A stretch of 64,000 bases of DNA from Mucilaginibacter sp. UR6-11. GTDB taxonomy: Bacteria; Bacteroidota; Bacteroidia; Sphingobacteriales; Sphingobacteriaceae. The translations under genes and the position numbers were made by a program. Below the pieces are notes generated by a model. It was not told the origin of the DNA. It saw only the letters and a program-made list of their open reading frames with translations, and ran no database searches. The stretch is taken from positions 124,001 to 188,000 of the forward strand of contig NZ_JAJIWO010000002.1 of NCBI RefSeq assembly GCF_020880695.1. Reading direction: 5' to 3'. Below, piece by piece: positions 18,475-21,615 of the stretch. The stretch's first letter is position 1, and each line of letters begins with the position of its first letter.

Positions 18475-18894
18475 ATGGCAGATGTGCACAGCAAAGAAAC
18501 CCGCAGTTATAACATGTCGCGGATTAAGAGTAAGAACACCAAACCCGAAATGCTGGTGCGGCAGTTCCTGCATAAAAATGGTTTACGATACCGACTGCAC
18601 GTAAAAGACCTGCCCGGCAAACCCGACATAGTATTACCCAAATACAAAACCGCAATTTTTATACACGGCTGCTTTTGGCATGGGCATGAGGGATGTAAAT
18701 ACTACGTTGTGCCTAAGACCAGAACAGAGTGGTGGTTAAATAAAATACAGGGAAACGCTACTAATGATGCAAAAGCCGAAGCACTGTTAAAAGAGGGTGG
18801 CTGGAAAATTATTACGATTTGGGAATGTGAATTAAAGAGGCTTTTATCTGAAAAAACTTTAGCCCAACTCTTGCTAAATTTAGCTCCGGAATAA
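18475..18894 (+). CDS. vsr: Very short patch repair endonuclease Vsr
   Basis: Vsr nicks next to T:G mismatches that arise when 5-methylcytosine deaminates, protecting methylated sites from mutation. The 139-aa protein starts MADVHSKETR, as E. coli Vsr does. Asp51 (PGKPDIVL), His64 and His69 (IHGCFWHGH) correspond to the E. coli catalytic residues. The zinc ligands appear as C66, H71, C74 and C118 (WECEL), with one extra residue before the third ligand. I chose the ATG at 18475 because the upstream in-frame extension is repeat sequence and does not match the family. Its position just before a C5-methyltransferase explains its job. Base composition is AT-richer than the genes to the left. Confidence 0.95.
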   Translation: MADVHSKETRSYNMSRIKSKNTKPEMLVRQFLHKNGLRYRLHVKDLPGKPDIVLPKYKTAIFIHGCFWHGHEGCKYYVVPKTRTEWWLNKIQGNATNDAKAEALLKEGGWKIITIWECELKRLLSEKTLAQLLLNLAPE

Positions 18895-18915
18895 TTCTCC
18901 ACAATCGCAAAAGTT

Positions 18916-18941
18916 CACTTATATCCGATTGACTTATAGTC
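18916..18941 (+). promoter_or_regulatory. Tandem C-box operator of the restriction-modification controller
   Basis: GACTTATAGTC at 18931-18941 is the consensus C-box that I know from controller proteins such as C.Esp1396I and C.PvuII. A weaker copy, CACTTATATCC, lies at 18916-18926. The two starts are 15 bases apart, the same pitch as in the Esp1396I operator. The pair ends 22 bases before the controller ATG at 18964, so the controller probably binds here to switch its own operon on and off. Confidence 0.75.
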
Positions 18942-18963
18942 GAATAGGCGATAGCTTGCAGCT

Positions 18964-19194
18964 ATGGATATTCGCAAGAAAATCGGCCTTCGTATAAAGG
19001 AATACCGGATAAATTTAAAACTCACTCAGGAAGCTTTAGCCTTTAAAGCTGAGATAGATAAGACTTATGTAAACGAGGTTGAAAACGGAAAAAGAAACAT
19101 TTCTGTAATCAATCTTGAAAAATTGATTGGTGCACTTGATGTAACTGTTAAAGATTTTTTTGACAGCAAGTCTTTTGAAGGAGGCGTTGAATAA
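18964..19194 (+). CDS. XRE-type controller (C) protein of the R-M system
   Basis: A 76-aa single-domain helix-turn-helix protein. IGLRIKEYRINLKLTQEALA and KTYVNEVENGKRNISVINLE are the typical Xre/Cro core, the second one containing the recognition helix; the size is that of C proteins. It lies downstream of a tandem C-box and its stop codon overlaps the methyltransferase start (TAATG at 19192-19196). C proteins delay nuclease expression until the host DNA is methylated, using dimer and tetramer binding at two C-boxes. This role is inferred from size, operator and neighbours. Confidence 0.85.
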   Translation: MDIRKKIGLRIKEYRINLKLTQEALAFKAEIDKTYVNEVENGKRNISVINLEKLIGALDVTVKDFFDSKSFEGGVE

Positions 19195-20402
19195 TGGCTC
19201 TTAAATCTTCAAAGGCTAATTCGCCTCTTGTACCAAATGAATTAGATTCGGCAGTACTTACACATTATGTTGTAACAAAAAACAAAGTTTATAAAGACAA
19301 AGCTTATGAAATCGCTGAAAATAACCCAAGCGAAATCCATGAGCCGGAAGCATTATATCAAGCTGTACAAAAAAGTTTATTTGATGTTACTGACATTCCT
19401 TTTCCCGGACCACCAAAAGGAAAAGAAAAATTTACCTTTATTGATCTATTTGCCGGCATAGGCGGCTTTCGTTTGGCATTGCAAAATCTTGGCGGACTTT
19501 GTGTGTATAGCTCGGAGTATGACAAGTATGCACAAAAAACGTATTTCGCAAATTTTGGAGAAACACCATTCGGAGATATCACTAAAGAAGAAACCAAGTC
19601 TTTTATCCCGCCTAAGTTCGATATCCTTTGTGGAGGATTTCCCTGCCAGCCATTTTCAATCGCCGGCGTTTCAAAAAAGAATAGCCTTGGAAGGAAACAT
19701 GGATTTGAGGATGAGAAACAGGGCAATTTGTTTTTTCATGTTGCAGAAATCATTGAGAAACACAGGCCTAAAGCATTCTTCCTGGAAAACGTAAAAAATC
19801 TGGTATCCCATGATAAGGGTAATACTTTCAGAGTGATTAAAGCAACACTTGAAGAGTTGGGATACTCATTTAACCATCGTGTATTAAATGGAAAACATTT
19901 TGTTCCGCAGCATCGAGACAGAACAATCATGGTAGGTTTTGATAAGCAGGTATTTGGGGAGGATATAACGTTTGACTTCGATTTAGTCAAGCTACCTGAA
20001 GCGGATAAGCAAATAAAATCTATACTTAAATCAGATGTAGATCCAAAATACACCTTGTCGGAACATTTGTGGAATTACCTGCAAGGATATGCTAAAAAAC
20101 ATAAAGAGAAAGGAAACGGCTTTGGCTTTGGTTTGGTGAATTTAGATGGCATTAGCAGGACTATGAGTGCTCGTTATTACAAGGATGGCGCTGAAATTCT
20201 AATACCACAAAATGGTTCAGTCCCCCGAAGATTGACCCCAGATGAATGCGCAGCATTACAAGGGTATCCTGTGAACGCGGGACATAAAAGCTTTAGAATA
20301 CCAGTATCAGATAACCAAGCTTATAAGCAGTTTGGAAATTCTGTTGTAACACCACTTATTGAGGCAGTAGGGAAAGAAATAGTTAAACACATTAAATCCT
20401 AA
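19194..20402 (+). CDS. C5-cytosine DNA methyltransferase, probably CCWGG-type
   Basis: A 402-aa methyltransferase with all m5C motifs in order: I (FIDLFAGIGGFRLAL, 82-96), IV with the catalytic Cys (GGFPCQPFSIAG, Cys151), VI (ENV, 198-200), VIII (QHRDR, 239-243), IX (RRLTPDECAALQGYP, 345-359) and X (QAYKQFGNSV, 375-384). The 80-residue N-terminal extension before motif I is also seen in Dcm/EcoRII-type enzymes. With an EcoRII-like nuclease and vsr beside it, the recognition sequence is probably CC(A/T)GG with the inner C methylated; that is inference. It overlaps the controller gene by one base and is four bases from the nuclease gene. Confidence 0.94.
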   Translation: MALKSSKANSPLVPNELDSAVLTHYVVTKNKVYKDKAYEIAENNPSEIHEPEALYQAVQKSLFDVTDIPFPGPPKGKEKFTFIDLFAGIGGFRLALQNLGGLCVYSSEYDKYAQKTYFANFGETPFGDITKEETKSFIPPKFDILCGGFPCQPFSIAGVSKKNSLGRKHGFEDEKQGNLFFHVAEIIEKHRPKAFFLENVKNLVSHDKGNTFRVIKATLEELGYSFNHRVLNGKHFVPQHRDRTIMVGFDKQVFGEDITFDFDLVKLPEADKQIKSILKSDVDPKYTLSEHLWNYLQGYAKKHKEKGNGFGFGLVNLDGISRTMSARYYKDGAEILIPQNGSVPRRLTPDECAALQGYPVNAGHKSFRIPVSDNQAYKQFGNSVVTPLIEAVGKEIVKHIKS

Positions 20403-20406
20403 ACAA

Positions 20407-21615
20407 ATGGCTAACTCCTTATCCAGTTATTTTAAAAGCATTGGTGCTAAAAGATTAAGTCGGGTAGAAATTGACCCTAAGACATCTCATCAACATGAGC
20501 TTAATGGAATCGCTGGGTTCAAGGAGATATTTGGTTTAGATCCAATTGAATTTAAGACGAAGTTCATCTACTTAGCTGACGACGAAGATGGAATCTTTGA
20601 AAACGACGGTTTTTTAAAATGGTACGATGCCCGGGAAAAGCACGCGACCAGAACTGAACACAGGCTGTATTATTCAGACAATCAAGTTATTCCGATTTCT
20701 GCCGAAGGCGATCTAATTATTGTTGGCGTAACACAAAAGAATGACGCCGTTGTCCTTGTTGCACCTAGTGGCTCCACTTCAGAGAAGCAATTACTATGGT
20801 TGTTTAATCTGTCCGAAGTTCAAAATAAATTTATCGTCAAGGATTTATCCGCGGATAAAACTGACATAGGATTTGCAGGGAAATATATAATCGCCTCGCT
20901 TGGAATTGAAATCGAAGAATCAGAAACAGACGATCTTGAAAAACTAATCACCTTATTCGGTAAGAAGTTTCCTCCCACCTATATTTTCTCGGAATATGCA
21001 CGCTCAACCGTTAAAGACATTTCAATAATAGAAGCTCCAGATGAGACACTTATAAAATGGCTTGAAAGAGAAGAGCTATTATTTCGAACATTAGAAAACA
21101 TTATCGTTAAGGAGAAATTAACTACCGGTTTTGGCAAAGACAATAACGATGTTGATGAGTTTATCAGTTTTTCGTTAAGCGTTCAAAACAGAAGAAAATC
21201 GAGAGCCGGACATTCATTCGAAAATCATTTAGCCGTAATATTTGAGGGCAATAAACTATCTTTTGATAAAGGAAAAACAACCGAAAGAAATAACAAACCG
21301 GATTTTCTATTTCCGAAAAATGGTTATACTGATCCTTCTTTCGATATTGAGCTTTTAACAATGTTGGGCGTAAAAACTACTGCGAAAGACAGATGGCGGC
21401 AGGTTTTATCGGAAGCTGATAAAATACCCTACAAACATTTAATAACTCTTGAACCTGCAATTAGCAGAAATCAGACGGATGAAATGTTGGCCAAAAACCT
21501 ACAGCTTGTGATACCTAAATCAATTATACCGACATATCAAAAGGACCAACAATTACAATTGATTTGCCTTTCGGACTTTATCACATATGTGGCAAAAAAA
21601 CAAGCCTTTATTTAA
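20407..21615 (+). CDS. EcoRII-like type II restriction endonuclease
   Basis: A 402-aa protein, nearly the length of EcoRII (404 aa). The C-terminal half carries the EcoRII catalytic segments: NRRKSRAGHSFENHL (261-275), NKPDFLFP (296-303) and GVKTTAKDRWRQVL (321-334), a PD-(D/E)XK-type nuclease core. The N-terminal half would be the effector-DNA-binding domain that makes EcoRII a type IIE enzyme needing two sites. The target is inferred to be CCWGG. It is the last gene of the controller-methylase-nuclease operon. No frameshift or early stop is visible, so it should be active. Confidence 0.88.
   Translation: MANSLSSYFKSIGAKRLSRVEIDPKTSHQHELNGIAGFKEIFGLDPIEFKTKFIYLADDEDGIFENDGFLKWYDAREKHATRTEHRLYYSDNQVIPISAEGDLIIVGVTQKNDAVVLVAPSGSTSEKQLLWLFNLSEVQNKFIVKDLSADKTDIGFAGKYIIASLGIEIEESETDDLEKLITLFGKKFPPTYIFSEYARSTVKDISIIEAPDETLIKWLEREELLFRTLENIIVKEKLTTGFGKDNNDVDEFISFSLSVQNRRKSRAGHSFENHLAVIFEGNKLSFDKGKTTERNNKPDFLFPKNGYTDPSFDIELLTMLGVKTTAKDRWRQVLSEADKIPYKHLITLEPAISRNQTDEMLAKNLQLVIPKSIIPTYQKDQQLQLICLSDFITYVAKKQAFI

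What the first reader, a model, noticed from the sequence alone, without database searches (positions are those of the whole stretch)
18916..18941. Two C-boxes with the 15-base pitch of the Esp1396I operator
GACTTATAGTC is the consensus C-box; the upstream partner CACTTATATCC is offset by exactly 15 bases. This predicts self-activation at the strong box followed by repression when the weak one fills, here in a phylum with a different promoter code (TAnnTTTG), so how the switch contacts this sigma factor would be new.
Basis: partly seen in the sequence, partly recalled or inferred. Interest (0 to 1): 0.6.

Follow-up and report, generated by a model that had tools for sequence, protein, structure and literature searches.

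The report
Two-site switch for a restriction-modification operon
A small regulator gene that starts a DNA-methylating and DNA-cutting defence operon has two conserved binding sites 15 bases apart in its promoter; the pair is real, but the strong-looking and weak-looking sites stand in the opposite order to the textbook switch, and the weak-looking one also stands alone in front of other defence genes.

Summary
The two boxes are real. CACTTATATCC (18916-18926) and GACTTATAGTC (18931-18941) lie 15 nt apart before a C-type regulator heading C, Dcm-like methyltransferase and EcoRII-C nuclease genes. In 17 Bacteroidota relatives found by protein alone plus the window, the distal box is nearly invariant (mean pairwise difference 0.010; fourfold sites 0.577). 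The 15-nt pitch stands out in 32 of 39 distinct C promoters. The distal box is conserved best, is kept where the proximal one is lost, and stands alone about 50 nt before other defence-cassette genes. I infer activation at the distal box (centre about -43) and repression at the consensus box (about -28). In this clade C is tied to the methyltransferase gene, in 17 of 17 relatives. Against me: of 20 genomes of the genus that have the lone-box gene family but no close C gene, 17 keep the distal-type box and 1 a perfect C-box, so C is not proven to be its reader. Binding, transcription start and regulation are untested.

The parts
18475..18894 (+). vsr, mismatch endonuclease gene just upstream (start chosen by likeness to L004; its family match begins a few codons further on)
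   Evidence: PF03852 and TIGR00632 on 18484-18891; upstream of C on the same strand in 13 of 17 relatives
18910..18931 (+). conserved block AAAGTTCACTTATATCCGATTG that contains the distal box
   Evidence: mean pairwise difference 0.010 in the box core over 18 sequences
18916..18926 (+). distal box CACTTATATCC, inferred activator site, centre about -43
   Evidence: CACTTATATCC in 23 of 24 DKTY-clade C promoters
18929..18931 (+). TTG, putative -33 element, sharing its G with the proximal box
   Evidence: present in 18 of 18 aligned promoters; assignment inferred
18931..18941 (+). proximal consensus box GACTTATAGTC, inferred repressor site, centre about -28
   Evidence: exact in 17 of 24 DKTY-clade promoters, lost or changed in the right half in 5
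18952..18959 (+). TAGCTTGC, putative -7 element; transcript start predicted at 18964 or 18965, i.e. leaderless or nearly so
   Evidence: sequence; spacing rule of 4 or 5 nt from PMC6847099 passages; inferred
18964..19194 (+). C gene, 76-aa HTH_3 controller protein
19194..20402 (+). M gene, Dcm-like cytosine-5 methyltransferase, overlapping the C stop
   Evidence: PF00145, TIGR00675; the only PF00145 match in the own genome
20407..21615 (+). R gene, nuclease with EcoRII-C domain
   Evidence: PF09019; EcoRII in the PDB

Best explanation
This is the autoregulatory operator of a C-type controller protein that heads a C, methyltransferase, nuclease operon. Shown by sequence: two boxes at fixed places before the C start, conserved while their surroundings have changed. 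Inferred: a C dimer on the distal box (centre about -43, beside the -33 element) contacts RNA polymerase and activates a weak promoter whose transcript starts at or next to the C start codon. As C rises, a second dimer, helped by the first through the 15-nt pitch, fills the proximal consensus box between the -33 and -7 elements and shuts the promoter. Because the methyltransferase gene follows C directly, the loop would give a burst of methyltransferase and then cap it; the nuclease shares the transcript here, while in some relatives it is convergent and has no box.
For: Footprint: box-1 core 0.010, box 2 0.118, against 0.697 upstream and 0.577 at fourfold sites. Fixed pitch and place over 39 distinct C promoters. 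Box 1 is kept where box 2 is lost (L017, L084) or changed in its right half (L018, L077, L078); none of the 24 DKTY-clade promoters shows the reverse. A change of the proximal right half-site, AGTC to GATC, makes a non-repressing PvuII promoter (PMC3695507 passage). Lone boxes sit about 50 nt before other genes, and at that place L143 and L144 have a perfect GACTTATAGTC with the same flanks, so the two box types exchange. The protein keeps the T, Y and R that match T36, Y37 and R46 of C.Esp1396I; S52 is N.
Against: By the gammaproteobacterial consensus box 1 is the poor site and box 2 the good one; if affinity follows that, C would mostly repress. The lone distal-type box is kept in 17 genomes of the genus without a close C gene, and C and the lone-box gene family are not associated in the genus (p 0.58). 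The -33 element is weakly defined in Flavobacterium, and 87% of predicted transcripts there have leaders over 10 nt (PMC6847099 passages), so the start-site geometry is a guess. No binding or expression data.
Confidence: 0.55

Rival explanations
1. C is only an autorepressor acting at the perfect proximal box. The distal block is a promoter element read by RNA polymerase or by another regulator, and it travels with mobile defence cassettes.
For: The lone block is kept in 17 genomes of the genus without a close C gene and is not associated with C there. It has little dyad symmetry (1 of 5 pairs in the 11-mer).
Against: At the same place other C clades have plain C-boxes (CACTTATAGTC in 6 of 8 DRTY-clade promoters), and two lone-box promoters have a perfect C-box there. 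The block is too rare for a general promoter element: 5 of 395 phylum genomes at up to 1 mismatch, all 5 among the 6 genomes of the own genus in that sample.
Confidence: 0.28
2. The two boxes always fill together as a tetramer and C is a plain homeostat with little or no activating phase.
For: Fixed 15-nt pitch; in C.Esp1396I a dimer on OL raises affinity for OR by two orders of magnitude (PMC3758141 passage); the proximal box is the better consensus.
Against: C promoters with only box 1 exist (L017, L084), and box 1 stands alone before other genes.
Confidence: 0.08
3. One reading: C activates from the perfect box and represses from the weak one.
For: If affinity follows the consensus, the perfect box fills first.
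Against: The perfect box is proximal, within the predicted promoter, where Esp1396I has its repressing site; natural promoters drop that box and keep the other.
Confidence: 0.07
4. The second box is a chance resemblance.
For: 3-mismatch boxes are at the chance level in the window.
Against: Conservation against fourfold sites at 0.577, and repeats specific to offset 15.
Confidence: 0.02

Closest known systems
Esp1396I C/R operator (pEsp1396, NC_004936)
   Same: Two boxes of GACTTATAGTC type, 15 nt apart, before a small HTH controller gene
   Different: There the perfect box is distal and the weak one proximal, and C is followed by R; here the order is reversed, C is followed by M, the centre between the boxes is GATT instead of one with GT, and the boxes end 22 nt, not 50 nt, before the ATG
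Kpn2I system
   Same: C gene precedes the methyltransferase gene (PMC4824078 passage)
   Different: Its C site is inside the C coding region and acts as an elongation roadblock (PMC6237814 passages); here the sites are in the promoter
PvuII system
   Same: Activator-repressor loop with paired C-boxes; a variant with a changed proximal half-site does not repress (PMC3695507 passage)
   Different: C is transcribed with R there; other promoter type; order of the boxes by strength not compared here
EcoRII restriction-modification
   Same: EcoRII-C nuclease domain and a Dcm-like methyltransferase
   Different: Has a C gene and vsr beside it; EcoRII-N domain not found in the window's R, though present in relative L004

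Membership tests
C.PvuII/C.Esp1396I-type controller proteins | small single-domain HTH protein related to known C proteins | tested here: met
   76 aa, HTH_3; C.BclI 1.1e-12, C.AhdI 1.4e-11, C.Esp1396I 2.8e-9; PADLOC control-protein model 2.2e-17
C.PvuII/C.Esp1396I-type controller proteins | gene next to restriction-modification genes | tested here: met
   C overlaps M, R follows at 5 nt
C.PvuII/C.Esp1396I-type controller proteins | two operators of the form GACTtatAGTC before C, 15 nt apart | tested here: met
   proximal box exact, distal box 3 mismatches, pitch 15
C.PvuII/C.Esp1396I-type controller proteins | conserved central GT between the two operators (PMC3115060 passage) | tested here: not met
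   GATT in the window and in its clade; the DRTY clade has CGTT
C.PvuII/C.Esp1396I-type controller proteins | stronger operator distal, weaker proximal | tested here: not met
   judged by match to the consensus only, 3 against 0 mismatches; affinity not testable
C.PvuII/C.Esp1396I-type controller proteins | base- and backbone-contacting residues T36, R46, Y37, S52 | tested here: inconclusive
   T, R and Y kept, S replaced by N, in the alignment; residues named in PMC4041747
C.PvuII/C.Esp1396I-type controller proteins | binds its boxes; activates, then represses | not testable with these tools
   needs bench work
EcoRII restriction-modification | EcoRII-C catalytic domain | tested here: met
   PF09019, 1.4e-62
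EcoRII restriction-modification | EcoRII-N domain | tested here: not met
   not among the Pfam matches of the window's R; found in L004
EcoRII restriction-modification | recognition of CCWGG | not testable with these tools
   specificity not predicted here

The most novel reading that the evidence does not exclude
The distal block is a shared address of a mobile defence regulon. Controller proteins of several clades, attached to restriction-modification and Schlafen-helicase cassettes, read one-box and two-box promoters. The lone-box genes, kept in genomes without any close controller, are listening posts that switch on when a cassette with a controller arrives, or are read by a regulator not yet known.
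Probability: 0.2. Interest if true: 0.75.

Novelty: new variant of a known kind. Interest (0 to 1): 0.52.

Why it matters
C-protein switches are model genetic switches, and the worked examples I met are mostly proteobacterial. Here is a natural set in Bacteroidota, with another promoter code, where the order of consensus and imperfect box is turned round, the controller is tied to the methyltransferase, and nature has made variants without the presumed repressing box. If one box type serves other defence genes too, controllers would link cassettes now thought to act alone; C-protein incompatibility between systems is already known (PMC3874152 passage).

Tried and rejected
Chance resemblance: rejected by the footprint and the offset control.

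A regulon inside this genome: not seen. Besides the two boxes themselves, the 26 other single-box matches all have 2 mismatches, and the reversed control gives more (88 against 28). The longer block occurs once.

A general Bacteroidota promoter element: rejected as too rare (5 of 6 genomes of the own genus in that sample, 0 of the other 389). It does occur outside the family, for instance in Chitinophagales, Taibaiella and Ferruginibacter records. No exact match of AGTTCACTTATATCCGATTG in viral contigs.

A C gene hidden in the lone-box genomes: not found. In 15 of these 17 genomes the best hits have E-values from 3.9e-12 to 1.4e-6, most of them in open frames of about 190 to 240 aa, longer than a C protein; exceptions are G062, G183 and G180 with 81 to 98 aa. 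In the 17 stretches L091-L107 (8 to 15 kb) no C-like frame reached 1e-6.

A box before nuclease genes of relatives: none found in the 17 relatives' loci beyond the C promoters, except two weak matches in L018 away from C. A box before vsr or HNH genes: none noticed by eye in the printed upstream stretches.

A statistical link between C and the lone-box gene family: none inside the genus (p 0.58). Over the family p is 0.004, probably because both are concentrated in this genus.

My second note said that three clades share the 15-nt pitch; that was wrong for the DRSY clade, which has 14.

Literature: Sorokin 2009, Mruk 2009 and Bogdanova 2009 are not held.

Full report
What is there. The window has vsr (to 18894), the two boxes, a 76-aa HTH_3 gene (18964-19194), a Dcm-like cytosine-5 methyltransferase (19194-20402) and a nuclease with an EcoRII-C domain (20407-21615), all on the + strand and nearly touching from C onward. 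The nearest solved relatives of the small protein are the controllers C.BclI, C.AhdI and C.Esp1396I.

The boxes. GACTTATAGTC at 18931 is exact, CACTTATATCC at 18916 has 3 mismatches to it, and the starts are 15 nt apart. In the window such 3-mismatch matches are at the chance level, so conservation has to decide. I scanned genome contigs with the protein only: 20 loci, 17 from Bacteroidota (L003-L019) and 3 distant ones (L020-L022) that lack the block and are left out of the counts below. In the 17 plus the window the block AAAGTTCACTTATATCCGATTG is almost unchanged. Mean pairwise differences: box-1 core 0.010, box 2 0.118, 40 nt upstream 0.697, the 5 nt after the GAAT that follows box 2 0.663 (not corrected for length differences), fourfold codon positions in C 0.577 (16 of the 18 sequences, 1,936 comparisons; on those 16 box 1 is 0.011 and box 2 0.057). 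This is a footprint.

The family. A search of 301 family genomes with the C alignment gave 50 with a hit at 1e-12, not all of them true C genes; 30 loci were fetched. Over all loci held I had 39 distinct C promoters. 32 repeat at offset 15 (at least 8/11); at no other offset from 8 to 25 do more than 6. I name clades by their recognition helix (names mine). The DKTY clade (24, with the window) has CACTTATATCC in 23 of 24, then GACTTATAGTC exactly in 17 of 24. The DRTYVTD clade (8) has CACTTATAGTC in 6 of 8, then GACTTATAGTC (4) or GACTTAAAGTC (4), with GT in the middle. The DRSY clade (3) has pitch 14. Exceptions: L017 and L084 keep only box 1; L018, L077 and L078 have a changed right half of box 2; L085 has no such pair; L086, L087 and L090 have imperfect second boxes.

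Polarity. In pEsp1396 the perfect box comes first and the imperfect one second, and the literature gives activation to the distal high-affinity site and repression to the proximal low-affinity one (PMC4041747, Introduction read). In the window and its clade the perfect box is second. With TAGCTTGC (18952-18959) as the -7 element and a start 4 or 5 nt after it (F. johnsoniae rule, PMC6847099 passages), the transcript starts at 18964 or 18965, at the ATG. Box 1 is then centred near -43 and box 2 near -28, between the -33 TTG (18929-18931) and the -7 element. The -7 element is a poor match (G at -10, GC for TG at -6 and -5), as expected of a promoter that needs help (inference). Caution: the same paper finds the -33 element weak and most transcripts leadered.

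Box 1 on its own. The pattern GTTCACTTATATCCGATTG with up to 2 mismatches is in 52 of 301 family genomes, against 7 for the reversed pattern. Four of the 30 fetched hits (L031, L032, L035, L040) look like chance. The others lie before C genes, or about 50 nt before an unknown ~100-aa protein starting MPNIKFNYLYRD ('MPN'; one member scanned, no Pfam match) or before half-length HpaII-like proteins (PF09561), in many cases just after an HNH_2-type endonuclease gene. To lessen bias I searched MPN by protein: 32 of 301 genomes, 30 loci fetched; the alignment itself came from box-bearing loci. 20 of 30 have the block, 19 with the start codon 50 or 51 nt from its first base and one at 64; 2 more (L143, L144) have a perfect GACTTATAGTC at the same place with the same flanks. 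Of the other 8, three are second genes behind HpaII-like genes that carry the block (L133, L139, L146), one shares the divergent C pair (L148), one had no start found (L155), and three have nothing (L147, L157, L158).

Against my reading. In the genus, 69 genomes were searched: 29 have MPN and 18 a C gene (1e-18); 9 have both, no more than expected (p 0.58), and 20 have MPN without C. Of these 20, 17 carry the block at MPN or at the head of its operon, G116 has the perfect C-box, and G131 and G171 (broken MPN matches) show no block. A laxer search of 15 of the 17 found only weak hits, 3.9e-12 at best.

What C controls. In 17 of 17 relatives a gene just after C matches the window's methyltransferase by tblastn (E 1e-6 or better; in L019 after one 167-aa gene); Pfam confirms the three of the most divergent ones that I tested (L010, L011, L016). 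The nucleases differ: EcoRII-C (window, L004), MvaI/BcnI and convergent (L005, L006, L009), HpaII and co-directional (L007, L013, L015); in the other relatives I did not identify the nuclease. The three convergent nucleases carry no box. A C gene before the methyltransferase has one tested precedent, Kpn2I (PMC4824078 passage). In the DRTYVTD clade C is followed by a Schlafen group 3 helicase (PF09848; L161 tested, L162-L166 have ORFs of like size and start, not tested) and in L167 by an HNH protein with a sub-threshold SRA match. Controllers of this type therefore also sit beside cassettes with no methyltransferase next to them.

Novelty. The protein and the two-box operator are of a known kind. 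I did not find in print the reversed order as a rule in Bacteroidota, the fixed geometry against the TAnnTTTG promoter, or the lone box before other defence genes. That rests on the full-text searches, seen as listings except for the papers cited here by passage. The survey of C-protein sites (Sorokin 2009) was not held and may describe part of this.

Noticed in passing
20407-21615: The nuclease has the EcoRII-C domain but no match to EcoRII-N in its first 220 residues, unlike the relative in L004: a different front half.
   Followed up: partly
L161:5604-7861: A C-type controller with its own 15-nt box pair heads an operon with a Schlafen group 3 helicase, not a methyltransferase, and divergently faces a lone-box operon.
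   Followed up: partly
L039:918-1475, L041:902-1468, L047:960-1454: Half-length proteins that match only the C-terminal part of the HpaII nuclease family, with the distal-type box before them.
   Followed up: no
L101:2890-2980 (also seen in L054): The first 25 codons of a vsr gene run straight into a distal-type box and a small zinc-ribbon-like gene: a cassette junction.
   Followed up: no
L004, L007, L093, L163, L165: A gene with a secretion-signal-like start and ...KHPEKAM...EQAKAILKEM... or a near form lies beside different cassettes in several genomes: a likely chromosomal hot spot for defence cassettes.
   Followed up: no
L096, L104, L170: Large helicase genes of about 1046 aa (in L170 with PLD, ResIII and DUF3427 domains) take the place of HNH before the lone-box gene; in L170 that box is the perfect GACTTATAGTC.
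   Followed up: partly
L088, L089, L108: C genes of the DRSY clade have their two boxes 14 nt apart instead of 15.
   Followed up: no
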